A DNA stretch of 64,000 nt, taken from Tribonema minus (taxonomy: Eukaryota > Sar > Xanthophyceae > Tribonematales > Tribonemataceae). Positions 11,324 to 61,377 of the stretch are shown here, piece after piece. How positions within the stretch are numbered: position 1 is the first letter of the stretch; each line of letters opens with the position of its first letter. The position numbers and the translations under genes are program-made. The DNA is taken from NCBI GenBank assembly GCA_017506865.1, contig JAFCMP010000541.1, positions 372,001 to 436,000 of the forward strand, read 5' to 3'. The notes beneath the pieces are model-generated. The model was not told the DNA's origin, did not search any database, and saw nothing but the letters and a program-made list of their open reading frames with translations.

Positions 11324-14300
11324 CTACCAGAAGCTGACCATGCCGACGATGAACTGAGCGAGGATGACCGTGCTGGCGAGGTAGATGACGCCGTCTTGCA
11401 CACTGTGATCCCGCCTGAGGATGGCCAGCTCGTTGACGAGCGTGCTCATGGTCGTGAGACTCGCGCAGAAGCCGGTGACGAATGCCTGCACGTGCGCAGA
11501 GGGGCAGTGCGGCAGGGCTGTCAGTGCTGCGCTGTGCGTTTTCTGCGGTTGAAATGTAAGCTGTGATGTGCACTTTCACACATGTTGACACGTATCGTTG
11601 ACAAGCATGCTCATGGTCGTGAGGCTTCGCGACGAGTGCTGTACTGTGCGGGACGAACTGCGGGTGAGAAATCAGCTGTGATGTGCGGATTCACATGTGT
11701 TGACTTCATCCAATGCAGCGGTATTTGGTGATTTCGGTTGAAGTATGATGCTTCCAAAGCAGGTGATAATCTATTTAAAAAAAAAACTGCAAAGCAGAGG
11801 GTATTGTATGTGAACTCTGCAAAGTATGTGATGACTTGAATAAATGCCCAACCGAGTAAAGCCAGCAGACGGCCAGGTCACCTGGCTTCCACGGCACCTT
11901 TGATGGGCATCGTCAACACAAGCATGCCCAATATCAAGGAACCACCAAAAGTATGACGTGCCAAGCGCAACCTCACAACATAGCGCGAGCGCAACGAGTG
12001 CACCGCGAGGGTGCCCTCCACACTCACGTGACTCGCTGACTGAGTTGACTCACACACTGACTCATCAACTCACCCTAGCAGCGGTGTCGTCCCATTCCAA
12101 CACCCTCCAGACTCACTGACTCACTCACTGAATGACTTGACTCACTCACTGACTCATATTAACTCACCCTGGCAGCGGTGTCGTCCCAGTCCGACGCCTT
12201 GGTGAACTCGTGCGTAACGAGCGCGCACGCGAGGGTGCCGCCAATGTTGGCCAGGAACGTTCCCAGGGGGAAGCGGCCGCCGCGGAACTTGTTGAACTGG
12301 CGCGCGAGCGCGTAGCGCAGCGACGCCCCCGGGATCGCAAAGAGGCCGCTGAGCCAGTAGCGCTTCTCGAGCCAGCTGTTGTCGTTGACGCCGAGCGCGA
12401 TGGAGAGGCCGATCGCTGTCGCCACGAGCAGCACGCCGTTGACAATGGCGATGATACCCTGCACGCGGGGGAAGGGGGGGGGGGAGGAGGGGAAGATGAG
12501 TAATTGCATGCAAGTTTGGGGGAATGTAATCAGAAATTGCCTTCCTGAGGTGCATGACAGGATCAGGCGTGCACCGACACCAGAGGATGGATTGTTGGCA
12601 CCAGGCAGTGGATGTTTTCAAAAGCAGGACTTGCTGCAATTACTCTCATCCTGATTTGTGGATCATAGGCTTGAGGGCAGTGGATGATTGAGCAACCGCT
12701 GCTGCCATTTTCAGGACAGCGCAGACGCAATTGTGATGGTTTAGCTTCACATTGTGAGGGTACAGCTTCACATGAGTGAGAAGAGACAATGATGACCTCT
12801 AGCCTGCCTTCAACATTTCACAGGTTATATGCCAGCATTTTAACCCTCTACTCAGACGGGCTGCACACCTCGCCAATGCCGGGGGCGCGGCCTTCCGCAC
12901 ATAGCCCGTGGTAACTTCCAGGAGAAAAGCTCATGACCTACCTTATGGTACAGTGGTCATTGCCCACCTAGCGGCACCTGCCTGCACACTTGTGACCTCA
13001 CTTTGAACACTCCTCAGTTGCCCAAATGTCAAGCCGCTACGCGGATGCATGCGCGTACCTCGCTGATGCCGGGTGCGGCCTTCTGTACAGCGCCCGTCAG
13101 CAGCGCTCCGACGTCCGCGCCGACGCGGTGCGCGACGATGAACGTCGCGATGCTCGCAAAGATGTAGCACAGCGCCGCGATCTGCGGCTGCGGAACGTCG
13201 CTGGTGGGCGCGATGAGCAGCGCGTTGGTCTGCAGCGTCCACGCGCTGAAGGTCGTGTACGCGCCGCACAGGCCGACGGACATGCCTGCGGGGGCGGCGG
13301 ATGCGGAGCGTCACGTCAGGTCACGTCAGAAGTAGAGAAAACGAAGTACGTGCATGTTTATTCAAGTGATAAGTTGAGAAAACTAAGTGCTGTTTGGTCT
13401 GCAGCGTCCACGCGCTGAAGGTGGTGCACGCGCCGCACACGCCGACAAACATGCCTGCGGAGCGCGGCGAATGCAGGGATGAGAACACTGAATAGTTCTT
13501 GCATTTCAGGTGAGAAGTTGAGCATACCAAGTACGTGTCAGTGGGTCGCATACGCGCCGCAGAGGCCGACGGACATGCCTGCAGAGGCCGCGAATGCAGA
13601 TAATTAGGCCAGCAGTTGAGAATACCAAGTACTTTTTGATACAGCACATGTGTGCATGAGGTACACATTTCCATAGTTTCGCCCCTCAAGCGAAAGTAAA
13701 AAGTACTTTTTTGATCATTCAAGTGAGAAGTTGAGTACTAAGTACTTGTTGGTGGGTCGTGTGCGCGCCGCAGAGGCCAAGAACATTCCTGCGGAGGCGC
13801 CGCATGCGGAGCGTCACGTCAGAAGTTGATGCTACCACGTACTTGTCAACTGACTTATTGATGAGCAAAGGAGCTGGCGCAAAAACGTGCTGGGTGCACC
13901 AGAAGCATCGTCAATTGGTCGCCTCACAGTCATCCGTCGCTGTGGCTGAATGCGCTGGCCAATAAAACAAGCTCAGTCTGAAGCAGGCATAAGGCCACCT
14001 GACGGTTAGGCTAAGGGTGAGTTCAGGAGTTTTATTGCTTGCAGCGTCTCGCAGTTCAAGCAGCTATGTTAATGTTTGTGATTTGGCCAATTAAGCCACC
14101 TGCCATATATATGTATACCAGAGAACTGCACTTGCTTTAGCAGCGGCACTTGAGACTCGCCAGCCCTATAGTCAATACTAATGTAATTTCTAGTATGTAT
14201 TCAATACTGACATGATTTGGAGCTGCACCCGTTGACCGCTGAAGCCGAGCAGGGGATGGTGACAGGACACATCGTGTCAATTCAAGGCAATCATTGCCAT

Positions 14301-14864
14301 CATAAATGGTCATACTCAGTCTGGCGGTTAGACAGGGGGACATGGTCACCTACGGCTGCACCATTATTGCGGGCAGGGCTGATCAGCATGTTTTTGGAAT
14401 CACCTGTAAGGAGTACCAGCGCGCCACCACCCTTGGACATCGTCGTCGAAGCCGCGACCAGGAAACCCAGGATCATGGATCCCGCGACGTTGTCGAAGAA
14501 GGAGGGCACCAGCAGCGTGTCTGCAGATGCGCGAGCAGAGCGGGGCAGCGATACGTGAGAGCCTGCAGCTCGTCCGCGAGGTGGAGAGTTGAACATCAAG
14601 CCGAATAATGCATGGCGAAGTGCACTCACCGGCGTCTATCACATCGGCAGCGGTGCTGCCAAAGAGGCGCTCAGTGAAGATCCTCGCATAGCAGCCCGCA
14701 ATAGCCCAGAGCGCAACGCTCACGTACAGGTTCACGACTGACGGTTCTTGAGGTTGCGGTTGCGGCGGCTGCTTCAAGTTCTCCTCCGTAGACGCCAACG
14801 GAGCCGCGTAGGCTGGCCCCTTGCCGGCATTCGCGTTCAGCAACTGATCAGAAGACGACACCAT
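11324..14864 (-). CDS. FEX: Fluoride exporter, two-domain CrcB/FEX family (5 exons)
   Basis: Fluoride channel/exporter of the plasma membrane that removes toxic F- from the cytosol. Exons in gene order are 14864-14630, 14520-14404, 13285-13059, 12458-12168 and 11485-11324. All phases agree, giving 343 residues. After a ~45-residue hydrophilic N-terminus the first CrcB domain shows WAIAGCYAR, FFDNVAGSMILGF (pore Asn) and LCGAYTTFSAW (~123-133). The second shows FAIPGASLRYALAR, FPLGTFLANIGG and TGFCASLTTMS (~294-304). A single chain with two domains is the usual eukaryotic FEX form, whereas bacterial Fluc is a dimer. Start ATG 14862-14864 was chosen because it is the first ATG followed by the hydrophilic leader; an ATG at 15026 would add 54 residues. 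Introns 2 to 4 carry junction echoes. Confidence 0.93.
11588..11640 (-). repeat. Junction echo of FEX exon 5 start
   Basis: The segment CATGCTCATGGTCGTGAG and flanks repeat the start of exon 5 (around 11433-11475), located upstream of the real acceptor in gene sense. Confidence 0.6.
12063..12105 (-). repeat. Junction echo of FEX exon 4 end with copied donor
   Basis: It is a near copy of 12163-12200, covering the last codons of exon 4 and its GTGAGT donor, about 95 bases further into intron 4. It could act as a decoy 5' splice site. Confidence 0.75.
12866..12912 (-). repeat. Junction echo of FEX exon 3 end
   Basis: This segment repeats, with changes, the 3' end of exon 3 at 13055-13100 (CCTCGC..ATGCCGGG and ..GCGGCCTTC..), placed downstream of the exon in gene sense. 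The real donor is GTACGC at 13058. Confidence 0.7.
13398..13830 (-). repeat. Junction echoes of FEX exon 3 start (three degenerate tandem copies)
   Basis: Three decayed copies of the acceptor plus the first bases of exon 3 lie in FEX intron 2, around 13398-13480, 13521-13600 and 13750-13830. The parent junction is at 13285. The first copy still reads MFVGVCGACTTFSAWTLQT in gene sense, against MSVGLCGAYTTFSAWTLQT in the real exon. Copies are separated by a shared spacer related to AAGTTGAG...CCAAGTAC. Confidence 0.85.
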
Positions 14865-17800: not shown

Positions 17801-18459
17801 TTGCGCTTGTGCCCTGTCACGTTCCTCGCAACACCAACTTACTTATAAGGTGCTGCTTACATCAATTCAGCAGCTGCATTAGCCTGAGCTTGAACAGGAC
17901 TCAATATGCACCGACATCAGACTCCAGCAACAGCGGCGTGCCCCAAGCAGCTACTTAGAGTTCATCATCAGACCAACTTGAAGCACTAAACTCAGCGTAC
18001 ACTGCACGTCAACATGATGGCACACCATCAACTGGCACCACGGTCTCTTGGAACATGTGCGGCTGCACGCTGTTGTTATCAATTGTCTGGACGTCTATCA
18101 TGATGTACTCAAAGCACCACTGATGCCCCCAGGCATTATCTGCGAATCGTACACCAAGACATTAATCCATCAATGGACACACAAGGCAACACAAGTTACT
18201 CTCTCAGAGGCTATCGCAGCACAAATACTGAAGTAGTGCAGCTACTAGTAACAGGCACGCTCAGGCTGCTGCAGCACCGAGTGTGGGCCTGGCGCTCAGC
18301 GCAGGGCGCACAGCCGCCGCCGCCGCCCCTGCCACCGCCGCCGCTGCAGCTGATGCCGCGGAACGCCACACATTGCGCATTCGCTGTCAGCATGGGCGCC
18401 TTCTCGCACCGTGGCACGCATATGCATCACGCCACGCGCACGCGCCCGCAGTCGCACGC
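14865..18459. other. Long intergenic region, no gene supported
   Basis: About 3.6 kb of DNA that is AT-richer than the genes. Frames of up to about 200 codons occur but lack motifs and codon structure. 14865-15250 is the likely upstream region of the FEX gene. C7-C8 tracts near 15997 and 16866 are the only clear low-complexity sites. Confidence 0.5.
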
Positions 18460-20021: not shown

Positions 20022-20122
20022 ACTCGTGAGGATTGTCGGACGGTAGGTTTGTCCAACAGTAGGTTTGTCAGTAAGTTTGTCGGACAAACCTACATGCATA
20101 CCGTCCGACAAATCTCACGAGT
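20022..20122. mobile_element. Small foldback (MITE-like) element, 101 bp
   Basis: Terminal inverted repeats of 24 bases lie at 20022-20045 and 20099-20122 with one mismatch and start ACTCGTGAG. An inner pair, AGGTTTGTCC / GGACAAACCT, lies inside. There is no coding capacity. The size and long near-perfect arms fit a non-autonomous DNA transposon or a foldback sequence. A target-site duplication was not identified. Confidence 0.6.
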
Positions 20123-20282
20123 CACCCGTATTGCACCCATGCTTTATAAATACAAGTGAGGTCGCTCAGTTGCCGACTGACTGGTAACAAGGGGCTTTCA
20201 TGACACATCCGCAAGGCGCACAATGACTCATGATAGTTATCCATGCATGCATTCAGTACCGCGTCGTACCCCAACATCGAAC

Positions 20283-26900: not shown

Positions 26901-29900
26901 AAGGGGCAGCATATCACCAGAATATCAAATTGAAGATTGCACACATGCCGCCAGCTGACAATTGATGCTGCACAGAGCGGTGCAGCACTCTGTGCATACA
27001 GCTCAGGCTGCATTGAGCTGCTTCCTGCCGTATTCAATGCATACGAAAGTCAAAATAATATCCGGTGACTGTAATGGCAATACCGGAGCACAATTTCATT
27101 TGAGGGGACCGAACAGTGTTGGCTGCCTGGACTTGCGCGCACTGCTCAGCATAGGTTATAGCGAGGATGCCTGCAGAATGGACCAACCCAGCAGTCGTTG
27201 CAGGATAAGACTCTTGCTCACCTGCCAGAGCAGTTTTGCTGTGTCTTGATACAGTGCCACCACGCTCTGCGCAGCGGGCGAGCAAGGATACTTTTTAAAG
27301 TTGAGAGAAATTTAAAGAGGATTGGCAGTTGCAAGTTGAAGCTTTCGGTCCCGACAGCGGGATTGAGTTGCGTCTGGCAATCACAACAGCTCAGTCCGTT
27401 GAGGCCAGAGCGGGTGCAGCACGGCTCAGCAGCAGCACCACGGGCAGCGCGGCTCAGCGGCGACAACTCATGCAGCACAGCTCAGCACGGCTCAGCCACC
27501 ATGCAGCACAGCTCAGCTGTGGCAACTCAGGCTGCACGGTTCAGTGCCGAGACAACGCGTGCAGCACGGCGCGGCGCCCTAACGATGCAGCCGCAACAGT
27601 AGCAGCAGCATCAGCAGCAGCAGCAGCAGCACCGCGCATCCATCTATCTGCTACGCCCGCTGCTGCTCCGCAGAGCGATGAGTCTCGCACATCCAGCTAG
27701 GGTCAAAGTTGCAAAGTCATAATCAAGATTATCTACGTAGAAGTACGTAATGGAGTAATCGTCAATGCAATGCGCCACTGAGACACTTCGTCGCAAGCAG
27801 TGCATGTACATTATGCTAGCAAGCTCAACACCAATCATCTGGAACCTTTCGAACCCTGATCGAGACCCACAATTTAAGTACCTCTTGAGTACATGCATGC
27901 ATACCACTAAGGAGGGGGCGTCACGCACCTGCCGCAGGCACGACCACGACTGCGCCAGCAGCCGCACCGGCGCGAGCTTTGCGCGTAGGTACACAAACAC
28001 GTAGTCCGACGGCAGCAGGAAGCGCAGCGCGGCGGTGTTGGCGGCACGCGCCGCCGCCGCGACCGCCGCCACGAGCGCGCGCGCCGCCGCCGCCGCCGCC
28101 GCTGCCGCGCCGCGCGCCGGCCCCGCCGCGGCGCGCGCGCAGCGCAGGATGAGCGCTGACGTGCCCGCGTGCGTGTGCGCGCGCGCCCAGGCGAGCGCAT
28201 GCGCGAGAGAGGCGCACAGGTGCCGCGCCACCGCCTCCGCTACCTGCAGTGCATGGTGATTGAGAGCGGGCGTGGTTATTGCGCCGGGCAGTTCTTGTGA
28301 TGCGGACAAAGGCAGACTTCTTGATCACAACGTGCTGATGCAAACTGCAAGCTCTGCTTGAAATCTGGAAGTACTGCCAGTGCACAAGATTATAGGTGAG
28401 GTGCCGCGCCGCCGCCTCTGCCACCTGCGGTGCGGGATTTCAAGAGCGTGAATGAGGGTGACTGGTGGCGGCGGCGGCGGTGCGGGGGTGGTCGCTGCGC
28501 CGTGCGGGGCTCGTGGCGTTTGCGAAGGCAGATTGTTGAAGCACGGCATGGCGGCGAGCCGCCGCGTGCAGGCATCACCAGCTCGCGCAGCGGACGACAC
28601 GCGCTCAATATGCTGGCACTCCTCATATGTGCGCAATAGTGACCGCGTCGGCGTTATTGACCTCAAGCTCGCGCATGGGCCTCGCGTCATTACGCCGCCT
28701 CATCGAGCATACACCGTACGCGCTCTTACTTCAAAGTTGTGACACAATTTAGAAAGCGCGGACTTCGACACGTGAGCGCGCGTGCGGGGGGGGGGGGGGG
28801 GGGGAAGGGCGGCGTCACGCACCTGCCGCTGCGAACGCAGCACGCGCAGCGCGCGGCGCGCACAGACGTCGCCGCGCAGCAGCGCGCAACACTTACGAGT
28901 CAGCACCGAGCCAGCGCGCATGATCTAGCCTCAGCACAAACACCGCATAAGCGCATATGTGGGCATAGGTAGGTTCGTACGCACCTGTCGCTGCGCGCGC
29001 AGCACGCGCAGCGCGAGGCGCACGCCGACGTCGCCGCGCAGCAGCGCTCACCACTAGTAACAACAAAATCAACACCGAATCAGCGCCCACGACCGAGCGT
29101 CAGCGAAAACGTCGTATGGGCTCGTGTGTGGGCGTAGGTACGTGCGCACCTGCCGCTGCGCGCGCAGCACGCGCAGCGCGAGGCGCACGCCGACGTCGCC
29201 GCGCAGCAGCGCCAGCAGCGCCGCGGCGTGGCGCCCGAGGAACGGCAGCAGGCTGCAGAGCCCCTGCAGCACGGTGTACGCCGGGAGGAAGTAGTCCAGG
29301 AGGACGTGCAGGCCCCAGCGCAGGCGCCTGCGGCAGTGCGAACGATGAGTATCGCAGCGGCGGCGGCATGAGCGCGTGTATGGCATCAGCGTACCGTATG
29401 CAATCTGGTGTACGCCGGCAGGAAGCAGTCCAAGAGGACGTGGAGGCCCCACCGCAGGCGCCTGCGGTAGAAGCATACGCGATGCGCAGTCGCGGCGGCG
29501 GCGTGAGCGCATGTGCGTTGTCAGCGTACCGTGTGTACTTTGTAGCATGCTGCGATGCTGCGAATGCTGGCCGGACAATGTCGAGAGCGTCGCGCGCGCC
29601 CCAGCGCAGGCGCCTGCGGCAGCAGCGCGCGCGAATGCGCATCGCAGCGGCGGCGTGAGCGTGTGCGCGTTGTCAGCGCACCGTATGTGTTTTGCAGCAT
29701 GCTGCGGTCCCGCAGCGCGCGTGCGCCGGCCGGACAACGGCGAGAGGGACACGTGGGCCCCAGCATTTGCTGCAGATCACGTCGGCGTACGCGTTGGCAC
29801 GTAAAAGGCGCACGCAGCCGCTTGCGCAGTGCGGAACGTGCCGGTGCCACCATATACCCCTGTACAGCCTGAGTGTATGTATGTGACATACGGTATGTAG

Positions 29901-39500: not shown

Positions 39501-42500
39501 TGCCAGACCACCAGTGCTGTCGAGGGGTCCCAGCTCACAGCGGTCGGCTTTGCCTAACCCTAACCCTAACCCTAACGGTGCGGGTGGCGACGCCTGAAGC
39601 GTGCGCACACGCAGGAACATGAAAGAAATGAACGTCACGCGTGTTCACGTAGAAATTTGACAGGCTGTGCGTCGCCCACCCTATGAATACAATCTTTTCA
39701 TAGGTTGCTGGCGCTAGTTGTTCTCTACTGTTCACGCTGTGCTTCGCGTAGGAATTGAACTCGCGTTCAAGGCCGTAGCTGCCCCATCTCGCATCCGCTG
39801 CCCCGCCTCAAGCAGCCTGCCGTCTGTCGAACCCTAACCCTAACCCTGACCCTAACCCTAACCGTCGACTCAGTCATCAGGCTCATCGACATGAAGACCG
39901 TCGGCCGTCTTCATGTGGTCCACGACAGAACACTAACCCTAACCCTAACCTTAACTCTGTAAAGGGATGGCCGCCGCGTCCCCCCAGCGGCGGTCTTCAA
40001 GCATCCCGTGGCCGATCATGGCGCAGTAAAAATCCGCCATCGGGCCCTCGACTGCGTGCGCACACGGAACAATGTGCCGAGCAAGGTACATCACATCTTG
40101 CGGCGGCAGTCATGTGTCTGCACAGCGCAACCATTGCGGCGCTCCACCGAAGTTGAAGGCGCAATGATGATCATCAAGCATAACGACACCACGATGTCGA
40201 CGGCAACAATGATCAACCGTCACGCAGCTCACATCTGCAGCGGCAGAGGCGGTTGGCGCACAACTGTCACCATGACTGTCATATACACAGGACAGGGACG
40301 CATCTGCCTGGAAGCGGAGCCGCGATCGCTGTGTAACTGACAGCCGCTCACTAGTTTAGTTGAACCACTGCTGTGCTGCTTATTAAGCCGCTTTCTCAAA
40401 GATACCCACCGCCTGCACAGCGACGTCACGGCGCAACTAACGTGGACCTCGGACCCTCCGAACACTGCGCTGTGGATTCCTTACATACTTGAGGGTCAGC
40501 AGCGCTTTGCGGTAACACAACAGCGTCAGCGCTCAAAGACAGGTGGCAGTACTCAACAGCAGTTCCGACGAGCGGAGCGTCACTGGCGACATGCGGTGTC
40601 AGCGCTCAACAAATGCGGTGGCAGTGCTCAGCAACAGTCCCAACGCTGGCGTATGCCGTGTGGAGGGGCGAACTGCGTGGTAGAGGTAGAGGTGGGTTAG
40701 GGTTAGGGTTAGGGTTAGGGTTAGGGAGGACAGGAGCGTTCCCATACGGCAACGGCGCATTGCAAGGCAGCGGAACTGCCATTGTGGGGGCCATTGACAG
40801 CACGGCAGAGGTATACGTAGATTGGGGGCGGCATTTTTTTGGAGGGTTTAGGGGGCCGGGGGGCGCCAGTGCTAGCGACGACATCAGACCTTTCCATACT
40901 GAACACGCAGGCCCCTCGAACGCTGAGAACCTTGCACACAGAAGTCCTTCAACTACTGTGTATATGATGGCACTGTTTGACTCGTGGCCAATGACTGCAA
41001 CAGCGGCGACCACGGTTATCGGTGGAAGGCACTTGCGGCTGACCACTCCTTGTCACCTAGAGCTCTACGATCTTTTGATACGTTTCCATCCAAATGTGGG
41101 TCATGGTCAGGATGCGAGCACTGCACATGAAGAGTTCAGGCCATACACTTCGTGCCCTGCAATGCCTCTTCATCAGGTGCGGCACTCAACGCTCCTCCCT
41201 CCAAACCCTCCCACGAGGCGCCACCCCCCCCCCCCCCAGCACGTGCCCCTGACCCCCACAACCCGCCCCGCCGCCGCCGCACGCCGCGCGCCGCAGCACA
41301 TGTGCGCCGTGCGCTACCTATACCTTTCGCCGCGGTGCTCGTTGCCGCCACCACGGCAACAGTCGTGCTGCCTTTGCCATGCCTCATCGTCACGCGCAAT
41401 GCACCACATGTCAACACCACAACGCGCTTCACCGTCACAGGCACAACCCCCAAAACACAGCTTCCCTCCCCCCCAAAATCAACACAGCTTTGAGACCACT
41501 CACTGGAGCCCCTCCCTCTTCCCCCCCCCCTGCCGCAGTACATGGGCACTGTGCGCTACCTGTACCTCTCCGCGGCGCTCGTCGCCGCGACCATGGCGAC
41601 GGTGCTGCTGCTGCAGCGCGCCGCCATCGCGCGCAGCGCGCCGGACGCCGCGGAGGCGCTGCGCAGCTCGCGCGCCGTGGGCTACTCGTGCGTGCTCTTC
41701 GCGTTCATGACGGCCGAAGCGGTGCTGCAGCCCGAGTTCTGCCCGCTGCCGTTTGCAGAGGGGCTGTGCTTTGCGACACACGCGCTGCCGCCGCCGCTGC
41801 CGGCGGCGCTGCGCGTGAACGCCGGTCCGTTCGCGCTGCTGCTGGTCGTGCAGGCCGTCATGCCGCGCGCCGGGTTCCTAGGGCACCTCGCGGGTGGGTG
41901 AGCGCTGCTGCGCTGCTGCAACTTCAAGTAGAGTTTGAAGTTGTGTGATTGCCGCGCCGTTCGCGCTGCTGCTGGTCGTGCAGGCCGTCATGCCGCCCGC
42001 CGCGTTCCTGGGGCACCTCGCGGGTGGGTGAGCGCTGCTGCGCTGCGTCAACTTCAAGTAGAGTTTGAAGTTGAGGGAGTGCCACGATAGGTAACGCGGT
42101 ACTCATCGATTTATGGGCTGGTCTCAGAGGCTGTTGCCGCGGTCTGCGCTCGTTGTGCAGCCGCGCACCGCGCCCAAAGGCCAGTACGTAGCCAGGCTTG
42201 AAATCAGCAGCAGAACTTGGCGTGCGAGCGCTGCAACACGCAGTGCAAGGCGCTCACGGGGCTTCGATGTTTTGTGCTTGCGCGACCTCAGATGAAGTTT
42301 TGCACGTGCGCGCGGGCAAGCCCGAGCGTTGCATGAAAAAAAATAATACCGTATGTGGCGCGTTCACACGGGTGTCTACGTTTTCGGTCCAGGGGGTCGA
42401 TGGTTATAGCTGTCCGGGCGCATGCATCTGCGCTTTCAGTTCAAGGAGCGATGATCGCACCGGTCTTGGTGTGTCATCTTGCGGTGTCTGCGTCGTGAGC

Positions 42501-49784: not shown

Positions 49785-51976
49785 CTACTTGGACAGGCCG
49801 ATGAGGCTGAAGAACTCTGCGCGCGTGCGCGGGTCCGCCTGGAAGCAGCCGAGCACGCTGCTCGTGACGGTCGTCGCGCCGCTCTTCTGCACGCCGCGCA
49901 TCACCATGCACATGTGCCTGCGCGCGCAGCAGTGATGGCGTCAGGTCAGCGCCAAGGGAATGTACGCTTCGGCGCTGTGTGTGCGTGTGCCTGTAGAGGC
50001 TGCATGGCATGTGTGCAGGGCGGCAAGTGCGGCGGCTGCCGGTGCCGGTTCGCAGCGCACATTGTAGGTTATACGATTTGGTGCGCTAAGCTGGTGCTGC
50101 GCCGTGATGCATGTCTGTCGCACGCGCAGCGGCGATGGGGCGCAGCGTCGGCTCTCAGCATCTAGAGCATTTTCACCTCTGCGCTGTGTGTTTGTGTATG
50201 TAGAGGCTGCGTGGTATGTGTGCACCGAAAAGACGCACCTAATCGACTGTGAAGGCGCCTCCCCGCCCCTCCCGCCCTCCCCAACCCAAATCACCCCTCG
50301 CTGTCGCACACCAGCCGTCGCCCGCGACGCATTGATTAGCGATGAAACTACAGCCCTGCTGAGCACTGTCACGTGTGGCGCGCGCGGCGCCGGCAGCGTG
50401 TTCACACATGGACGCCAGGACTGGTACTGTGTGGCGTGATGGACGTCTATTGCTCACATGCTGCACCGCGGAAGCAAACAGCGAACTACCGGGGCTGCCA
50501 GGACCCTTGTGTGATCCACCTGTCGACCGTCGTGTGTCATACCTTCAGAAGGCCTGCAAGCTGGAAACGCTGAATAACCCTGCTCATATGGCGGCGCCCA
50601 TCATACTGTCCAACTTGAAAGCACGTTGCTTCACCTTCAAATCGGAAGTGCAACTTGAACTCAAATTGCTTTGAACTGCAAATAAGAAGTGTACTTCAAA
50701 CTCACGTTGCTTCCACCACGACCCCCACGCCCAGAGGGTTTATGGCCTCGTAGATCGCCTCCGCAATCTGCTTTGTCAGCCGCTCCTGCACCTGCAGTCG
50801 CTGCGCATACATGTCCGCGATCCGCGCCAGCTTGCTGAGGCCCAGCACCTGAAGTTGCGGTTGCAGTTGCAGTGCGGAGGCTCAGCTGCTGAGTGCGAGC
50901 TTGCTGAGGCCCAGCACTTGAAGTTGCAGTTGAAGCTACAGTTGAAGTGGCTGTGCAGGGGCTACGGCTGCTGAGTGCAATGCGTCAGAGTACACCACTG
51001 CTGATGCTTCAAGTGTGCTTTGTCCTGCAGTATATCATTATGTGGGTACATGCGAGACCAATCACTGCGCATGCAGTAGATGCTTCAAGGGCATCACGCG
51101 AGGTACAGTGACATGGGCAGACTTCAGGTGGTATGCGTATTACAATACGTAGCTCTGAATGGGGTGTGCATGCAATGTGCGCCGAGGGATGTCCACTTCA
51201 TCCAATACCTTTGACCACAGTATGTACGAGAAGGGCACGAGGTGGTACTCGCACATCTGACCGGGGTATGTACCTCTACACTTGTTCCAATACATACCTT
51301 TGACCGGGGTTTGTACACAATGTGCGCACGTCCGTGCCGTTGACCAGGGTGTGCATACATTGCCCAATACGTAGTGGTAGCATCATAACAAATAATAATA
51401 CCACCTTTGATGTGGGTACGTATGCAATGTGCGCGCGTCCATACCCACTACATACCTTTGACTGGTGTTTGTAAGACTGATACCTACTCCAATACTTCAA
51501 AGTACGCACCTTTGACCGCGGTATGTACGCAATGTGCGTGCGCCCGTAGAACGGCATGAGGTGGTGGTCGCACATGTGATCAGGGTATGTATACTTATTT
51601 AAATACATACCTTTGACCGGGGTATGTACGCAATGTGCGCGCGCCCGTAGAACGGCACGAGGTGGTGCTCGCACATGGAGTACACGTCAATGTCCTTCAC
51701 CAGTATCATCTCGTGGTGATGCTCCTCGAAGATGGCGCCGTTGATGACGTCGTCCAGGCGCTTCTCGTAGCCCTGCGCATACAGCAGCAGCCGCAGCAGC
51801 AGCAACAGCGGCAGCATCAGCAGCATCAGCAGCATCAGCAGCAGCAGCAGCAGTTTGATGCGCACATTTCATGAGCACCAGCAAGTGGTACTTGGCGATG
51901 TGCATGCAGCAGCAGCGGCGGGTCGAATGCGCACGGCTCATGACGCCCACAGCAAGCGCCACTGGGCGATGTGCAT

Positions 51977-52010
<34 letters not shown>

Positions 52011-53796
52011 GTCGAATGCGCACGCTTCATGAACACCAGCAAGCGGCATTTGGCGATGAGAAGGCGCTTCCAGTGGCACAGTCAGGGCTTGGCATACTCC
52101 ATTCATTTCATTCTGAAGGCCTAACGCAAGCGGCAATTGGCAATCGATCAGAAGCCGTGTCCAGTGGCACAACAGAGGCTTGACATATTTCAGAAAGATG
52201 CAGAAGTATGACTCTGAAGGTATGATGCCGTGCGGTGGCGGCGAAGCGTACAGCAGACGGCGCGGGGTTTGGTCTGCGAAGCCACAGCCCATGTGCACGA
52301 TGGGCGCAATGCATAAAGTGTCGGCGAATGCGAGCAGGGCCTGCGAGCGCGCGCGCGCAACAGCCACGGTGTCTGTCGCGCCCCTTGCGGTGCGAAGCGC
52401 GCGCATGGAGGCCTAGGTACAAAGGTCCAGTAGACAGGCCACAGGAGTGGCGCAACAAACACATGCTGTCCAGCAGTGCTAGGTGTTGCGACGCAGCAGC
52501 GTGTGTTGACGTGATTGGCGGGCCGGTGTGTGAGAAAGCCACATTGGACGCTGCCCTTGCCAACAGGAGGATCCCCAAATGAGTACAATGAGCACAAGTG
52601 CAGCACTGTTGAAAACACCAAGATATCCATGAGCACGGGTGCTGCTGCAGTTAGTCGCTGTTGCAGTTGTGTTTGTGCTGTTGTCTGTCTAGTTGTTTCT
52701 TTTGCAGTTGCTGAAGCGCGCAGTACATGGGATGAGCAGTGATGACGGCGAACGACGCGGCGATGTCCCTTGGACGCCGCCCTAGCCACCTTTAAACATG
52801 TCCCGCCCGTGGGCTGCGCACCTGAGCTCACTGTATCCAATAAAATTGCAGTGTGCAACTGCAGCATTTGATCACAATTTTGTCTGGCATTGGCCTGGCA
52901 ATCACGTGAACACACTCGTGCTGTGCGAAGCACCTCAAACTGCTGGACAGCATCTCTAATTGAGCTGCTGCCACTGCTTTGGCGTTATTGTGATATCGCT
53001 TCACCTGTGCAGGCCTCCGTTCACGCGCTGCGCACTGCGCGCAGCCTTTTCTGCATTTCTTCATGAGCATTGCACGCACGATCTTGGGACTGCCTGCACT
53101 TGCTGGAACCTGTGCTACCATCCGCGCAAGGCACGCGAATCTTGGCTTTATTCAAATCTCAACACGCCCATCAGCTGTGCGCGCCGCAGTTACTAGGCCT
53201 CACTGCGCACACTGGCGTGCATGCCGGCCTTGTACGCATTGGCAATGGCACCTCCGTGAACATCATCAGTCGGCGGCAGTGCCGCTTAACATGGTGGTCG
53301 GGTCGCTTGCCTCACTGAAGGTAGGGCCCCCGGTACGTCAGCAGAGCTGGCGACACCTCAGCTACCGCGTCGATTTTTCAGGTCCTACTCGGTGCTGAGC
53401 CACAAGCGTTATTTAAAACAGTATGCGACAGCTGCGGCAGCAGAATTCCAGCCGTATTCTCAAGCTCGGGCCATCAGACAACTCCCGTGCTGATTCATCA
53501 CACCAACTGACCTTCGTGCAGTCCAATAGAGCTCTGGCCATGCGATATGGCGTTCTGACCAGGCCCTCTCTGGTCGGGTCCTCCCCCATGCACGTGAGAA
53601 GTGTGGACACAGCAGCGGTCATGGTGGCTAATCTCTCCTCCTCAGTCTGAGATGATCGCCTCGCCGCCACATCCTCCCCGGCACGAGGGCCGTCATCGCC
53701 ATTGGTGCGCTTGCTCGCTGCTCCCATGCCGTCCAGGCCGCTATTTTGATCCGGCAGCGATATTGCTCTGCTTCTGTTGCTCTTGACGGCCTCCAT
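49785..53796 (-). CDS. folE: GTP cyclohydrolase I (4 exons, 240 aa)
   Basis: Converts GTP to 7,8-dihydroneopterin triphosphate, the first step of folate/pterin synthesis. Exons in gene order are 53796-53512, 51772-51611, 50848-50706 and 49917-49785, in consistent phase. After a ~55-residue variable N-terminus it shows [18 protein letters not shown], then [55 protein letters not shown] and HMCMVMRGV, ending FFSLIGLSK. Zinc ligands Cys ~129, His ~132 and Cys ~200 are all present, so the enzyme should be active. The start is the only in-frame ATG ahead of the conserved core; the open frame continues upstream to about 53940 without ATG, so a longer N-terminus from another exon is possible. Introns 1 and 2 hold junction echoes around exon 2, and intron 2 also one of exon 3. 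Confidence 0.95.
50895..50940 (-). repeat. Junction echo of GTP cyclohydrolase exon 3 start
   Basis: Repeats the acceptor and LGLSKL codons of exon 3 (parent 50829-50868), including GCTTGCTGAGGCCCAGCAC, with the flanking TTGCAGTTGAAG repeat. Confidence 0.85.
51200..51590 (-). repeat. Four junction echoes of GTP cyclohydrolase exon 2 end
   Basis: After the exon 2 donor (51611 in gene sense), copies around 51509-51585, 51420-51480, 51297-51350 and 51200-51265 repeat the exon end with donor-like GTATGTA. The nearest reads [22 protein letters not shown] against [19 protein letters not shown] in the exon. Decay increases with distance. Confidence 0.9.
51778..52060 (-). repeat. CAG/CTG tracts and ~100-bp tandem repeat ahead of exon 2
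   Basis: CAG runs at about 51778-51856 and 51972-52012 alternate with three copies of a unit containing CATGA.CACCAGCAAG.GG and GGCGATGTGCATG (about 51860, 51930 and 52030). In gene sense this is the pyrimidine-poor CTG-rich region before the exon 2 acceptor. Confidence 0.8.
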
Positions 53797-54184: not shown

Positions 54185-57100
54185 ATGGGGTTCTCGGAGT
54201 CTCTGGATCGGTATTTCAAAATTACGGAGCGTGGATCCAATGTCACCACGGAAGTGCGGGCAGGCGTTGCCTCATTCCTGACCATGTCTTACAATCTGCT
54301 CGTCAATCCACAGGTGAGTCTGAGTATGCCTTGAAACGTTTACAAGCACGCATCAATCCAAGCACCGCCATGTCCGTGAACATGCGAGAGGTTTGTCAGC
54401 TGAAATCACCTCCCTGCTGCATTTGTACGTACTTGTTTGAAGTGTTTCAGCAGTTAACTTCAATCACATCACATTTTTCAATGCTGTTTTCATGGCAACA
54501 ACGTGGTTGCACCTGTTAATTGCTGACAACAGCAACTGCAAAATTTAATTAAGTCATATGTAGCGCTTTGAACTAAGTCAAATCTGTGCTTGCTGGCGTG
54601 ATGCGCTGCGTCGTGTGACTGTGCCTGCAGATCATGAGCAAATGTGGCATCCCAGTTGAGGTGAGCAATGCTGACATGCGGTAGCTCGGCACCAACGCCT
54701 GCCCTTCATATTGCACATCTCCTTTGTTACAGTGCAAAAGTAGAGGTACGCATGCAGCGTCGTGCTCGCAGTGTGAATGAGGCTCAAGCCAAGCTTACTT
54801 CATTAGGAGAGTGCACGTGCGTATCTCTTGTAAACATGTTGGCGAACACATACTTCAGTTTTCAAGAGTTTGAGCAAGCACGTGGCCTGCTGCAAAGCTT
54901 TGGTGGCATGCGGATGCTGCTGAGGAAGACAAGCAGCTGTTAAACACATGTAAGCCATGCCATCACAGGAGTGGACAAAAGGGGGTGGTGGAGCGAGGTG
55001 CGGTCTGCTGAGCTGCTGGGTGGAGGTGTATATATGTTTGCAGTGGCTGATGTATGTATGCATAGGCGGTTACAACAACGGATGATGGAGCGAGTACATG
55101 GCGGCTTCCGCTGAGCCGCTGGATGGAGGTCAACGTTTGTATTATGTTGTGGGAAATTGCGGCGCCAGTGCAGCACGCTAATTCACAGCGCCATGTGCAT
55201 TCGAAGCCGCCAGCGAGCCTCGCAGCAGGCGCGTGCCTGTGGCGCCATCGTCCCCATCGCTCCGCGCATCGCAGGCGCGCTCCGCCCTGCGCCGCTGTCG
55301 TGAATGAGCACGCGTCGGCGTTGGCGCGCTTGTTGGAGGCGTTTCTGTGCGTGGCTTCCTTCTTTGCTTGCGAACTTCTGCTATGGGCTATGTTGCTCGC
55401 GGGATTGTGTTTGCATGCAAGCTCAAGGCTCAACAGCTGACCGGCCTGTTGGCTCATAGTCAAAAGCATGTACAGATGTAGAAGTACTTGCTTCACAAGG
55501 CGCTGAAAACATTTGTATACTGTCCCCATGATCAAACATGCGAAGACGTGAACTGGAACTGCCGTATCCCAGAGGCTATGTAGAAAGCTGCCGCTTCGGA
55601 ACTACGCACACAAAGTGCCCTCGTTGCGCTGCAGTTTTGGTTCACAAGGTGTTGCGCTGTACAAGTACTTGCTTGCGGCGACCCGCTGCGCACCAGGTGC
55701 GGTGGTGGTGATGAGCACAAGCAATAGTTCGCGGAGCGTCCCCTTGTGCTGCGGACGACAGCCTCTGTCAGTAAAGCTATGCGGTGTGCTGATCAGCTTG
55801 GCAGTCTGTGCTTCATGTATGTGTGCTCAACGCAGTCCCTCCCGCGCCACCTCAAGCTGTATGCAATCATGGCTGTGGCGGTGGCAGCGGCGGCGGCAGC
55901 GGCGACGGCGGCAGCGGCAGCGGTGGCGGCAGCAGCGGCAGTGGCTCCCGCTGCGGCACACACCTGCGTGTACGGACTGCGCGTTCACGATGCTGCCGAC
56001 TCGAAGCACCTCACAGGGGTGAAGCATCTCACAGCCACCATGCCTCCGCGCCGCGCGCCGCTGCTGCCGCCGCTGCGCGCAGGACGTGGTGGTGGCGACG
56101 GCGGCAGCGAGCTGCGTCGCGAGCGTCCTCGTCGGCCTGTTTGGCAACCTGCCCTTCGGCCTCGCCCCCGGCATGGGGCTGAGCGCGTACCTCACCTTCG
56201 GGCTCGTGGTCGGCGGCGACCTCACGCGCGTGCAGGCGCTGACGTCGTGCCTCGTGTCGGGCGCGCTCGTCGCCGTCGTGACGCTCACCGGCATCTCGCA
56301 CTTCCTCATGCGCATCACGCCGCACCACGTCAAGGTACGTGGCCCCATGGGGGTCGTCTTTTTGTTTTCTAAAATGGTCAATTTGCCTTTAAGTTGGAGT
56401 GTCAAATTTGATATTGAAGTTGAAGTTTGACTTGAGGCGCCATGCCTCGCGGCGGGCGCGCTCATCACGGTGGTGATGCACTTCATCACGCGCATCACGC
56501 CGCACCACGTCAAGGTGCGCGGTGGCCGCGGGCTGGTGCGGAGCGTCGTCTATCTGATTTAACTTGGAGAATGTCTTCACGTTTAAGCACTGTGCCTCAT
56601 GCAGAGCGCACTTGTCGCCGTTGTGACGCCGACGGACATCTCGCGCTTCCTCATGCGCGTCACGCCGCACCACGTTGAGGTGTGGCGGCAGACGAACCAG
56701 TGCAAGTTGAGGTTGCCTCGCGACGTGCGTCCATGTTGTAGTCGTGATGCTAGCGGGCGTGGTGTGCCCTTCTCATGCGCATCACGCCGCACAAAGTCAA
56801 GGTGCGCAAGCGCTTGCACAACAGTGTGCACAGCGCCGCGCAAGCGCACGCACAACAGTGTGCACAGCGCTGTCCGTTACTTTTTTTGGCGGGCCCCCCA
56901 GTTGAAGTTGAAGCCTTCCATTTGCATTCAAAGTTGTGAGCGAGGCGAGAGCCACAGCCTCTGACGTCATGCCCCGCACCGCCGAGCCAGCGGCGTCTGC
57001 CACGGTCACGGGCACGTCGGCTACCACAGTTGAAGTTCAACTTGCACCCCGCTTGAAGTCTCTGACCACTGCCTCCCGCGCGTCCACACCCGCTCTCTCG

Positions 57101-60100
57101 CCGCTTTCAGCTGGCGATCGTCGTTGGCATGAGCCTGCTGTTTGCGCTCATAGGCATGGTCGCCACCTCTCACCGCTGCGCAGGTGCTGATAGGCATGGT
57201 TGCCACAACTGATCCACTGTTCATCCGCCTGTGCTCTCACCACCTGCACTTGGCGATTGTCGTCGGAATGGGCCTGCTCATCGCGCTCATAGGCATGGTT
57301 GAAGTCGACATCATCGTCTTCAGCGGCGACGAGTCACTCGTCGCACTTGGCGACCTCTCCAACACTACCGCTATGCTATAAAATGCCATCAACCTGCGCT
57401 AGTCTCACTCGTCACACATGGGACCAATCCGCTTCGTACTTTGCTCTCACCACCTCACAGCTGGCGATTGTAGTGGGCATGGGCCTGCTCATTGCGCTCA
57501 TAGGCATGGTCGAAGTCGACCTCGTCGTCTCCAGCGGCGACGAGTCACTCGTCGCGCTCGGCGACCTGTCCGATTGGAAGATCTGGCTTGTCATGAGCGG
57601 CCTCCTCCTCATCGGCACGCTAACCTACCACCAGATAGAGGGCGGCATCCTCATCGGCATCATGGTCTGCACGCTCACGTACTTCAGCGTCACGGGCGAG
57701 TGGCCAAAGAACTTTGTCGAGGTGCCGCGCATCGAGAGCGCGTTCTCGGAGAACGTCGACCTGTCGTCGCTCGACTCGGGGTGAGTCATTTGAGCACTTG
57801 AGTCGTCAGTCGTTGAGTACGCGAGTACGTGAGTCGATCACGACTCGCGGCGCGTAGTCGATGTCCGTCGGACAACCTGCACTGCTGACTGCAATGGTGG
57901 ATATTATTTGAGCAAGTCGGTGACTAACGAGAGCGCGTTCTCTGATAACGTTGACCTGTCGTCGCGCGACTCGGGGTGAGTCATTGAGCACTGAGGTGCC
58001 GAGTCTGTGTGTCTCGCATTGCACGCCAGCCCAGCCCACCGGACCACCTGCGCAGGTGCTTTTTTTTATTACAATGTCATCTGAGCGCGCGGCGACTGAC
58101 TGCATTGTGATGCGGCGCACCGCCAGCGCGTTCTTGGAAACCATCAAGCTGTCGTCACTCGACTCAGGGCGAGTGTGTTGTTCAGAGTGGGTGAAGTTGC
58201 AGGGCGCGGTACTGCCACCGCGCTGACATATGCGCGGCACAAGAGACACAATCTGAACAAGAGCCGGCCATTGGGTGCTGACAATAAGAGCCCCCCCCCC
58301 TCCTCCCCCTCCCTCTTGCATACCACCACCAACACGACACAACAATCCACACTGGCATATCACGTGCATCCATCTCACTCCCCACCATCCCCCCCCCTCT
58401 CTTGCAAACCACCACCACCACAACACACTCCACGCTCGCACATCAAATGCGACCATCTCACCCCCCCCCTGCCCCCCCATCCCCCCCCTGCGTCCGCAGC
58501 TGCATCATGCCGATGTTCGCCTTTGTCCTCATGGCGCTGTTCGACATCAGCGGCGTCATGTACGGCCTCGGCTCACTCGCATATCAGCCCCCCCCCTTCC
58601 CCCGCCCCATCCCCCCCCCTGCCCCCCCCCCCCCCCACCCCCTTTCGCAGCTGCATCATGCCGATATTTGCCTTCGTCTTCGTGGCGCTGTTCGACATCA
58701 GCGGCGTTATGTATGGCCTCGGCTCACTCGCATATCAAGTGCGACCATCTCACCCCCCCCTTTCCCCCGCCCCATCCCCCCCCCTGCCCCCCCCCCCCCC
58801 ACCACCCCCTTCCGCAGCTGCATCATGCCGATATTTGCCTTCGTCTTTGTGGCGCTGTTCGACATCAGCGGCGTCATGTATGGCCTCGGCTCACTCGCAA
58901 AGCTGGAGTCCGGTCCCGCAGGGCTGCCCGGCGGCATCTGGGGCTTCCTGGGTTCCGCAGTGGGCACCGCCATCGCCGCCGCGCTTGGGTGCTCGCCGAT
59001 TATTGTTCAGGTATAATATGAAATGCCTCGAAGGCTATAATATAAAGCTTGCACACAGCAATGTTTTGAATGCTAAGGATATGGTGGCACTGTCTGACTC
59101 GTGGCCAATGAGTCATGTCTGCTGCAGCGGCGACCACGGTTACTGATGGAATATATTTGCGGCTAACCACACCTTGTCATTTAGAGCTGTATGATCTTTT
59201 GGTGCATTTCTAATCATGCTTCAAAGTAGGCATAATAATCTTGTGGTTTCATGTATGCGCACTCAGGTGGAGAATGTGGCGGGCATCAAGGAGGGCGGCC
59301 GCACGGGCCTGACGGCCTGCGTTGTCGGCGCGCTCTTCGCTGCGAGCCTGTTCCTTATATAAATAATGTAGAAGTATTTATTTATAATGATAATCTAGTT
59401 ATTATTTGTATGTATGCGCACTCAGGTGAGGAACGCGGCGGGCATCAAAGAAGGTGGACGCACGGGCCTCACGGCCTGCGTCGTGGGCGCACTCTTCGCC
59501 GCGAGCCTGTTCGTTGATATAGTAATAGAAGTATAATAATAATTTAGTAATTTTTTGTATGTATGCGCACTCAGGTGGAGAACGCGGCGGGCATCAAAGA
59601 GGGCGGACGCACGGGCCTCACGGCCTGCGTCGTGGGCGCGCTCTTCGCCGCGAGCCTGTTCCTTTTTATAGTAATAGAAGTATAATAATAATTTAGTGAT
59701 TGTTTTTATGTATGCGCACTCAGGTGGAGAACGCGGCGGGCATCAAAGAGGGCGGACGCACGGGCCTCACGGCGTGCGTCGTGGGCGCGCTCTTCGCCGC
59801 GAGCCTGTTCCTTATTATAATAATGATCTCGTGCTTATTTGTATGCATGTGCACGCAGGTGGAGAACGCGGCGGGCATCAAGGCCTGTGTGTTACCTTGT
59901 AATATCATCAGTTCATAAACCCGTGTTATTTTTACATATATATGCGCACTCAGGTGGAGAACGCAGCGGGCATAAAGGAGGGCGGACGCACGGGCCTCAC
60001 GGCCTGCATCGTGGGCACGCTCTTCGCCGCGGGGCCTGTTCCTCATTATAAAAAAAGTAGAAGTATTTATAATAATAATCTAGTGATTATTTATATGTAT

Positions 60101-61377
60101 GCGCACACAGGTGGAGAATGCGGCGGGCATCAAAGAAGGTGGACGCACGGGCCTCACGGCCTGCGTCGTGGGCGCGCTCTTCGCCGCGAGCCTGTTCCTT
60201 GCGCCGCTCTTCGGACAGATCCCCAACGCCGCCACCGCGCCAGTGCTCATCCTGGTGGGCGCGATGATGACCAACGAGTCCAAGCACATCGACTGGCACA
60301 ACATGAAGGCGAGTCACCGCCGCTGCTGCTGCGGGGGGGGGGGGGGGGGGGGCGTTGGTGTAAGCTGAGCTGGTGCTGCAGTTTTTGTTCTTCAAGCTGT
60401 CTGCCATCAGGGCGTGACTTGGGTGTTGCTGGAAGCGTTGGTTGTCAGGACTATGAGTAGTTTTGCAGGCGCCATTGCCGCTCTAAACGATATGAAGGTG
60501 CGTGACTGCCCTTATCACAGGCACTGCCGTTGGCGCAACACCGCCACCTGGGAGGTTTTGCCAGCCCTGCTGACTACCCAGAGCGTCTGCTGTCTGGATG
60601 TGGCTTGTCTGTGCCCCAGCCATTCACTGTCAGCGAAACAACTTCCCCAGCCATTCACTGTCAGCGAAACAACTTCCGTTGCAAAGGCTGTCGCAGCTCC
60701 ACTGGACGTGAACAATTTCAACTTTGGTCTTTGTTGAAGTTGACGCTCTGTTTCCTCCACCTGTGCTCATGATGGATGGAGACGCTGAGCCACGGTCTGT
60801 GCCTCAAAATCAGAGTGCATGCATGTACAACAAAATGTGTGTATGCAGACACTTCAGCCCAGCCGTGTCTTGGCGACAGCGTAGTCATACACTCTCATAA
60901 AAGCAAAACCTTGACGCACGCGCTTACTCTCATTCCCTACCCTAACCCTACTCTGACCCTGACCTATCTCGTCCCTAACCCTACCCTTAACCCTAACCCT
61001 ACCCTGACCCTAACCCTAACCCTCATCCCCCCCCCCCCCCCCCCCCGCAGCAAGCGCTCCCCGCGTTCCTCTGCATCGCCATGATGCCCTTCACCTACTC
61101 CATCCCGAACGGCATCCTCTTCGGCATGCTCTTCTCCTTTGCCTTCTTCTTCACGAGCGGCGAGGCCTTCGAGCGCTGCCGCGGCCTCGGGCGCCGCGCG
61201 CAGTACGCGCCTCTCGACGCCGGCGGCGGCAGCGGCGACGGCGGCGGCGTCAGCGCCTTTTTCGACGACACGCAGCTCAAGCGCAACCCCTCGCTGCTCG
61301 TCAGCAAGCGCGAGGCGGACGAGGCGGAGGCCGCCGCCGGCTACGGCGCGGGGGCGGCGTCGGTGTCGCAGTACTAG
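54185..61377 (+). CDS. azgA: AzgA-type purine (adenine/guanine/hypoxanthine) permease (7 exons, 482 aa)
   Basis: Proton-coupled purine transporter of the AzgA branch of the NCS2/NAT superfamily. Exons are 54185-54313, 54631-54660, 56083-56334, 57461-57780, 58818-59010, 60111-60308 and 61051-61377; all phases agree. Diagnostic segments are LDRYFKITERGSNVTTEVRAG at the start, FLTMSYNLLVNPQ, GLFGNLPFGLAPGMGLSAY, VVGMGLLIALIGM, FVLMALFDISGVMYGLG, GIKEGGRTGLTA and PAFLCIAMMPFTYSIPNGI. The C-terminal ~50 residues are hydrophilic and Gly/Ala-rich. The start ATG precedes the conserved N-terminus directly; an upstream in-frame ATG at 54107 is less likely. Intron 6 begins with GC rather than GT. Exons 3-6 are surrounded by junction echoes. 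Confidence 0.95.
56435..56810 (+). repeat. Three junction echoes of permease exon 3 end
   Basis: Copies at about 56440-56520, 56595-56685 and 56755-56810 repeat the exon 3 end (parent 56250-56340), readable as LVAVVT.T.IS.FLMR.TPHHV. followed by GTGCG or GTGTGG donors. Confidence 0.9.
57105..57380 (+). repeat. Two or three junction echoes of permease exon 4 start
   Basis: Copies near 57108-57190 and 57225-57365 repeat the acceptor and LAIVVGMGLLIALIGMVEVD of exon 4 (parent 57450-57560). The second copy is long (about 120 exon bases) and remains open. Confidence 0.9.
57920..58185 (+). repeat. Two junction echoes of permease exon 4 end
   Basis: Copies at about 57925-57995 and 58125-58180 repeat ESAFSENVDLSSLDSG and the GTGAGT donor (parent 57730-57790). 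The second has GCGAGT in place of the donor. Confidence 0.85.
58500..58760 (+). repeat. Two junction echoes of permease exon 5 start
   Basis: Copies starting at 58500 and 58651 carry poly-C, CAG and the exon 5 start CIMP.FAFV.MALFDISGVMYGLGSLA almost unchanged. The full exon starts at 58818. Spacing is 151 and 167 bases. After ...GSLA the copies run into poly-C DNA instead of the rest of the exon. Confidence 0.95.
59098..59215. repeat. Dispersed repeat family, copy 4
   Basis: Matches GCAGCGGCGACCACGGTTAC, TTGCGGCTAACCACACCTTG and ATGATCTTTTG, with GACTCGTGGCCAATGA to the left shared with copy 2. It lies at the start of permease intron 5. Confidence 0.85.
59267..60060 (+). repeat. Ladder of six junction echoes of permease exon 6
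   Basis: Copies start at 59267, 59426, 59575, 59724, 59859 and 59954; the full exon starts at 60111. Each has the TGCGCACTCAG-like acceptor. Five keep about 90 bases of exon in frame (V.N.AGIKEGGRTGLTAC.VG.LFAA), while the copy at 59859 keeps only about 26. All then meet AT-rich DNA with an early stop. No copy has a donor. Spacing is 159, 149, 149, 135, 95 and 157 bases. Confidence 0.97.
60309..60314 (+). other. GC-type 5' splice site of permease intron 6
   Basis: The exon ends ATGAAG and the intron starts GCGAGT. Only this junction keeps phase to the next exon (QALPAFL), so a GC-AG intron is inferred. A G16-18 tract follows about 30 bases downstream. Confidence 0.7.
60935..61046 (+). repeat. 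CCCTAA-like array and poly-C tract before permease exon 7
   Basis: Degenerate to perfect CCCTAA units at 60935-61024 run into about 20 C that end in GCAG at the exon 7 acceptor (61050). The telomere-like array thus forms the polypyrimidine region of a working intron. Confidence 0.85.

What the first reader, a model, noticed from the sequence alone, without database searches (positions are those of the whole stretch)
11324..60308. Junction echoes: introns filled with tandem copies of the adjacent exon edge, always spanning the splice site
In four of the six spliced genes with good models and in a fifth of unknown family, introns next to an exon carry one to six tandem, progressively decayed copies of that exon's edge. 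Echoes after an exon include its donor; echoes before an exon include its acceptor. Repeat periods are 95-170 bases, and decay generally grows with distance. This looks like a systematic process that duplicates exon-intron boundaries and lengthens introns, leaving ladders of decoy splice sites. I know of no named system with this pattern.
Basis: seen in the sequence. Interest (0 to 1): 0.92.

Follow-up and report, generated by a model that had tools for sequence, protein, structure and literature searches.

The report
Exon-edge copies that lengthen algal introns
[quoted passage not shown] they behave like ordinary local DNA duplications that survive there because splicing removes them, but they cluster at junctions more than chance alone seems to allow.

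Summary
Three window genes match annotated Tribonema minus proteins (xanthophyte alga). I modelled 45 introns: 13 in three window genes, 32 in kinesin and myosin genes chosen without regard to repeats. Self-alignment gave 41 duplication families: 26 span a splice junction, 12 are intron-only, 3 touch an exon with little or no intron part, none is exon-only. In the unbiased set 17 of 64 junctions carry echoes. Most of the 'always spans the splice site' pattern follows from geometry: a tandem duplication containing exon must straddle the junction to survive. Simulations of random duplication, exon purging and decay predict 35-50% junction families; 68% (26 of 38) are seen. Families with one or two matching pairs fit the null (9:11), but those with three or more are almost all junctional (17:1; null 46-66%). 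Echoes look like neutral debris: splice dinucleotides are intact in 52 of 67 copies, as mean identity predicts, and codon positions 1 and 2 differ equally. No intron-birth signature and no shared introner element were found. Best reading: frequent short tandem duplications lengthen introns and persist and multiply where an exon anchors one copy. Known event type, unusual prevalence; part of the junction excess is unexplained.

The parts
54185..61377 (+). AzgA-type purine permease gene; exons 54185-54313, 54631-54660, 56083-56334, 57461-57780, 58818-59010, 60111-60308, 61051-61377
   Evidence: model; 99% to annotated T. minus protein P0001; Pfam PF00860 E 4e-30 on P0001
56478..56806 (+). three donor echoes of exon 56083-56334 (up to 88 bp of exon tail plus 5-9 bp of intron)
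57095..57360 (+). two acceptor echoes of exon 57461-57780
57928..58174 (+). two donor echoes of exon 57461-57780
58461..58817 (+). two acceptor echoes of exon 58818-59010, period about 150
59251..60044 (+). six acceptor echoes of exon 60111-60308, period about 149-158, one truncated
49785..53796 (-). GTP cyclohydrolase I gene; exons 53512-53796, 51611-51772, 50706-50848, 49785-49917
   Evidence: 100% to annotated P0126
51143..51576 (-). donor echoes of exon 51611-51772 (seven aligned pieces)
50895..50942 (-). acceptor echo of exon 50706-50848
11324..14864 (-). CrcB/FEX-type gene; exons 14630-14864, 14431-14520 (annotated protein implies 27 more bases at its 3' end), 13059-13285, 12168-12458, 11324-11485
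   Evidence: P0121 97%; PF02537 on P0121
13394..13822 (-). three acceptor echoes of exon 13059-13285
12014..12104 (-). donor echo of exon 12168-12458, head-to-tail, offset 94
11595..11631 (-). echo of exon 11324-11485, 20-55 bp inside the exon; the aligned piece does not reach the acceptor (scored X, not junction)
41945..42086 (+). donor-side echo, period 130, of the rhomboid-like exon ending near 41896 (not modelled)
   Evidence: PF01694 E 1e-4 on 41494-41901
41290..41371 (+). acceptor-side echo of the rhomboid-like exon at 41532-41611 (not modelled)
28817..29212 (-). donor-side tandem echoes, period about 165, of an exon of an unassigned gene (not modelled)

Best explanation
These are tandem DNA duplications of roughly 60-190 bp arising frequently along Tribonema genes. 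Those inside coding exons are removed by selection. Those that straddle a splice junction are tolerated, because the intact outer exon edge is still spliced correctly, so the extra copy, splice site included, becomes intron and decays neutrally. Introns thereby grow. A copy held constant by selection (the exon) keeps its echoes recognisable longer, and probably keeps them recombining (exon-to-echo exchange is harmless, echo-to-exon exchange is purged), which favours repeated expansion at junctions. Shown: local direct copies, head-to-tail in the clearest cases, the splice site inside the unit, absence from exon interiors, neutral decay, absence of the extra copies from the annotated proteins of three window genes. 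Inferred: the mutational route (for example fill-in repair of staggered breaks) and the exon-anchored expansion.
For: Of 41 families none is exon-only; duplicate coverage falls from 0.31 at the exon edge to 0.00 beyond 150 bp. In 6 of 26 nearest echoes the matched stretch fills the whole offset, so they are demonstrably head-to-tail (7 if a 12-base gap is allowed; my reading). Differences between exon and echo by codon position are 118, 117, 206 of about 1230 sites each: echoes unconstrained, exon constrained. Splice dinucleotides are intact in 52 of 67 echoes, 77% expected. Families with one or two matching pairs are J:I 9:11, near what random placement predicts. The farthest echo is more decayed than the nearest in 15 of 20 arrays. 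Annotated proteins P0001, P0121 and P0126 contain each echoed segment once. P0122 (341 aa on a 1066-base JGI record, 89-92% identical) also carries it once; I take it for a spliced transcript of a relative, which is inference.
Against: Junction families are 26 of 38 (68%); simulations with random placement, purging and decay give 35-50% (12 settings). Multi-copy families are 17 junctional to 1 intronic; a simulation with homology-driven exchange and exon purging reached 38:20 at most, so the anchoring idea does not by itself reproduce the effect. In 19 of 26 nearest echoes the matched stretch leaves about 20-135 bases of the offset unmatched, so head-to-tail structure is not visible there. Homology often stops soon after the splice site on the intron side (intron part 20 bp or less in 44% of 71 real against 22% of 542 simulated echoes), which plain duplication with my decay rates does not predict. 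The gradient of decay is weak.
Confidence: 0.6

Rival explanations
1. Pure survivorship and detection bias: duplications fall at random, exon-interior ones are purged, junction ones stay visible longer; nothing favours junctions.
For: Explains absence of exon-interior copies and the 9:11 ratio of families with one or two pairs. Two of 12 simulated settings give a junction share of 0.50; there 26 of 38 would have P about 0.02 and 17 of 25 about 0.05 by my own estimate (no call).
Against: 26 of 38 observed against 0.35-0.47 in 10 of 12 settings, P 0.007 or less in the eight where it was computed; kinesin/myosin alone 17 of 25, P 0.0008-0.03. Counting only the 21 of 26 junction families whose intronic part alone is at least 28 bases (my count) leaves 21 of 33, P 0.0007-0.04. 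Simulated coverage rises from 0.11-0.16 at the intron end to 0.42-0.54 beyond 300 bases; real coverage is flat at 0.24-0.34. Families with three or more pairs are 17:1.
Confidence: 0.2
2. A process aimed at exon-intron boundaries (for example breaks tied to transcription, splicing or nucleosome edges) duplicates junctions recurrently.
For: About threefold excess at junctions; multi-copy families almost only there; even intron-only families lie close to junctions (KS P 0.007, 12 families); a G+C step lies at the junction (0.62 to 0.52 at donors, 0.66 to 0.63 at acceptors).
Against: The exon share of the unit averages 0.50 with wide spread, as for random breakpoints; families with one or two pairs are not enriched; no targeting sequence identified.
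Confidence: 0.13
3. Intron birth by duplication of an AGGT-bearing exon segment (Rogers-type), followed by expansion.
For: Many splice sites read CAG|G or AG|GT.
Against: The intron head matches the downstream exon head in 1 of 45 introns and the intron tail the upstream exon tail in 1 of 45, both short.
Confidence: 0.03
4. Functional decoy sites or alternative exons kept by selection.
For: 52 of 67 echo splice dinucleotides are intact.
Against: That equals the neutral expectation (0.77); echo codon positions 1 and 2 differ from the exon equally.
Confidence: 0.02

Closest known systems
Tandem duplication across an intron-exon boundary in a potato RdRp gene (PMC4974935, passages read)
   Same: Tandem unit made of intron end plus exon start, splice signals copied with it
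   Different: One event that created a new intron and inserted exon sequence; here several genes, copies stay inside existing introns, up to nine pieces
Rogers-type tandem genomic duplication with AGGT (PMC3443670 and PMC2891723, passages read)
   Same: Local direct duplication meeting splice sites
   Different: That unit is exonic and makes an intron; tested and not found here
Small tandem duplications from CST/Pol alpha-primase fill-in at staggered breaks (PMC8355091, passages read); patch-mediated repair in rice (seen only as cited there)
   Same: Plausible source of short direct duplications
   Different: Not tested here; described there as short (<100 bp) insertions, with no link to splice sites in the passages read
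Minisatellite (VNTR) overlapping an exon edge (general knowledge)
   Same: Arrays such as 59251-60044 are tandem repeats of nearly constant period
   Different: In other arrays copies differ in extent and spacing, and the end copy is a constrained exon
Introner elements (recalled family)
   Same: Intron content made by a repeating process
   Different: No sequence family shared between introns: 2 short hits among 45 introns

Membership tests
Tandem genomic duplication crossing a splice junction | Two or more direct copies, head-to-tail | tested here: met
   Direct copies throughout; matched stretch fills the offset in 6 of 26 nearest echoes (7 with a 12-base gap; my reading); TRF arrays. In the other 19 the head-to-tail form is not visible
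Tandem genomic duplication crossing a splice junction | Unit includes exon, splice site and intron | tested here: met
   67 of 75 echo copies (25 of 26 arrays examined) reach the splice dinucleotide
Tandem-duplication intron gain (Rogers model) | Intron flanked by copies of one exonic AGGT segment | tested here: not met
   1 of 45 head and 1 of 45 tail matches, both short
Tandem-duplication intron gain (Rogers model) | Intron absent in relatives | not testable with these tools
   No DNA of a eukaryotic relative was at hand
Introner elements | Similar sequence in many introns | tested here: not met
   2 short cross-intron hits among 45 introns; not searched genome-wide
Assembly artefact | Copies identical or absent from reads | tested here: inconclusive
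   Copies differ by 3-30% from the exon, unlike assembly stutter; reads not available
Functional decoy splice sites | Splice signals preserved above neutral | tested here: not met
   52 of 67 intact against 0.77 expected

The most novel reading that the evidence does not exclude
Exon-intron junctions in this alga are recurrent duplication sites: a process tied to the boundary itself, or to an exon held constant by selection acting as a permanent template, stamps out copies into the intron, making junction-anchored repeats a main route of intron growth.
Probability: 0.2. Interest if true: 0.8.

Novelty: new variant of a known kind. Interest (0 to 1): 0.52.

Why it matters
How introns become long is an open question, often answered with transposons. 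Here 26 of 90 junctions (17 of 64 in the unbiased set) carry datable, apparently neutral copies of a constrained exon edge, so the rate, size and order of intron-lengthening duplications could be read from one genome. It also suggests that splicing tolerates many intact duplicate splice sites near the true one, a natural test of how the right site is chosen.

Tried and rejected
Naive null: placing whole arrays at random in present-day introns gave 7.5 junction families expected against 26. I do not rely on it, because it ignores intron growth and the slower decay of exon-anchored copies; the simulations replace it.

Forward simulations use parameters I chose to resemble the intron lengths and family density; none was fitted, and several ended with shorter introns or fewer families than the real set. 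One search picks introns without length weighting, which raises the expected junction share.

A first count on 30 introns with a 12/12-base rule gave J 16, I 9, X 1; I then loosened the rule to 10 exon and 8 intron bases, after seeing one donor echo with only about 8 intron bases. The decay and splice-site analyses use arrays with at least 15 exon bases, 25 of 26.

Dropped before counts: one of 26 candidate kinesin intron pairs had no consistent splice pair (L053, a region with repeats), and one of three L030 exon joins gave none. Single exons or exons not adjacent in the kinesin profile (L040, L044, L054, L058, parts of L053, L056, L057) were not used. The last array in L050 was left out because no downstream exon was found. 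The rhomboid-like and unassigned window genes are outside the counts. The CrcB exon 2 donor was 27 bases off in the counts; no family sits there.

Considered and dropped: haptophyte origin, Rogers intron gain and introners, functional decoys, duplication driven by exon sequence (exon share only 0.50).

Full report
WHAT THE WINDOW IS. The window is G000:C538:372001-436000 of a 158-Mb, 554-contig genome. The permease gene at 54-61 kb matches annotated P0001 of Tribonema minus at 99%, on a contig of 632,972 bases, the length of C538. GTP cyclohydrolase I (P0126, 100%) and a CrcB-type protein (P0121, 97%) of the same species lie on a contig of the same length. The host is therefore taken to be this xanthophyte (taxonomy).

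CHECKING THE OBSERVATION. Self-alignment of the window gave 55 local direct pairs. I modelled three genes exon by exon; the annotated proteins confirm the models with small differences. Echoes carry the donor when they follow an exon and the acceptor when they precede one. The annotated proteins hold each echoed segment once, so the annotation treats the echoes as intron. Whether that annotation rests on RNA is not known to me.

IS IT GENERAL? This gave 32 introns, plus 13 in the window: 45 in all, median 702 bases. Families of self-matches were called junction (J) if an aligned copy held at least 10 exon and 8 intron bases. Result: 41 families: J 26 (13 donor, 13 acceptor), intron-only 12, X 3, exon-only 0. 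In the unbiased set: J 17, I 8, X 1. Judging from their coordinates, two X families have an exon-edge copy with 4-6 intron bases, and the third lies 20-55 bases inside an exon.

IS IT MORE THAN CHANCE? Three levels. (a) Exon interiors: duplicate coverage is 0.31 within 20 bases of the junction, 0.08 at 50-100 and 0.00 beyond 150 bases into the exon. That is what coding selection should do to tandem duplications, and it removes most of the mystery of 'always spanning': a tandem copy with exon in it can lie in an intron only if the unit straddles the junction. (b) Junctions against intron interiors: simulations of random duplications with purging, neutral decay of introns and near-constant exons gave junction shares of 0.47, 0.39-0.45, 0.35-0.42 and 0.39-0.50, against 0.68 observed (26 of 38). 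P was 0.007 or less in the eight settings where it was computed; for the unbiased 17 of 25, 0.0008-0.03. At a share of 0.50, P would be about 0.02 and 0.05 by my own estimate, not from a call. Counting only the 21 junction families whose intronic part alone is at least 28 bases (my count) gives 21 of 33, P 0.0007-0.04. The coverage profile agrees: real coverage is flat along introns (0.24-0.34), simulated coverage rises inward (0.11-0.16 to 0.42-0.54), so by my arithmetic the junction is about threefold high relative to the interior. (c) Copy number: families with fewer than three matching pairs are 9 J to 11 I, near the null; those with three or more are 17 J to 1 I (Fisher P 0.0014), where the simulations give 0.46-0.66 J. 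The excess thus sits in the multi-copy arrays. Part of this is linkage: an exon that stays constant ties independent copies into one family; the simulations include that.

WHAT THE COPIES ARE. Of 75 echo copies in 25 arrays 67 reach the splice dinucleotide, and 52 of those have it intact, 0.77 being expected from the mean identity: neither kept nor avoided. Exon-echo differences fall 118, 117, 206 on codon positions 1, 2, 3, so echoes are unconstrained while the exon accepts mainly silent change. Nearest echoes average 89.3% identity and farthest 83.8%; 15 arrays fall, 5 rise, but neighbouring steps are not ordered (29 to 20, P 0.25). The exon share of the unit averages 0.50. In 6 of 26 nearest echoes the match fills the whole offset, the mark of a head-to-tail duplication (7 with a 12-base gap); in the other 19, about 20-135 bases remain unmatched (my reading).

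MECHANISM. The evidence fits ordinary tandem duplication, tolerated because splicing still uses the intact outer edge. PMC8355091 (passages) gives a repair route to small tandem duplications; its use here is inference. [quoted passage not shown] that T. minus does is not tested. For the multi-copy excess I propose an exon-anchored ratchet: exchange from exon to echo is neutral, the reverse is purged. A simulation of this moved the multi-copy ratio only to 38:20, so it is at best part of the answer. The other open point is that homology often ends soon after the splice site on the intron side (44% of 71 against 22% of 542 simulated); faster intron decay by insertions and deletions would explain it, but I did not measure that.

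AGAINST OTHER READINGS. Rogers-type intron birth: 1 head and 1 tail match of 45, both short. Introners: 2 short hits among 45 introns, not searched genome-wide. Assembly stutter: copies differ from the exon by 3-30%; reads were not available.

LITERATURE. PMC4974935 (passages) describes a single tandem duplication crossing an intron-exon boundary that made a new intron in potato, and cites multi-copy exonic duplications with introns in fission yeast; PMC3443670 and PMC2891723 (passages) discuss the tandem-duplication model. My searches (listings only, open-licence papers only) showed no title or abstract start describing junction-spanning echo arrays across a genome or in Tribonema. I saw no T. 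minus genome paper in those listings.

LIMITS. 45 introns from a few gene types; families within one intron are not fully independent; simulation settings are mine; window genes were chosen because they show echoes; no relative's DNA, reads or RNA were available.

Noticed in passing
60935-61025, 38253-38276, 39552-39954, 40694-40726, 25800-26042 and others: Interstitial telomere-type CCCTAA arrays: 35 matches with up to one mismatch against 0.06 expected; the 60.9-kb array lies in the last permease intron.
   Followed up: partly
window, e.g. 56414, 56902, 57030, 41917, 42047, 47147, 24294, 25230: A short motif close to TTGAAGTTGAA recurs across the window: 25 matches with up to one mismatch, 0.52 expected, largest shuffle 3; it also lies inside the rhomboid-gene echo unit. 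Origin unknown.
   Followed up: partly
60290-61060: The annotated T. minus protein reads ..MKATLPAF.. where two homologues (P0002, P0003) read MKEALPAF; a GC-AG intron (60309-61050) giving MKQALPAF fits them better, so the annotated last junction may be wrong.
   Followed up: partly
30295-30365: A GCA-rich stretch inside the 30000-31000 query matches many places in the genome (99 matches listed, nearly all this stretch).
   Followed up: no
L057 and L032: Large arrays outside the window: nine acceptor-echo pieces before one kinesin exon (L057) and four before another (L032).
   Followed up: yes
8393-8559: An 18-base repeat, 9.3 copies, reading as GGGPGI units in one frame; gene not assigned.
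   Followed up: no
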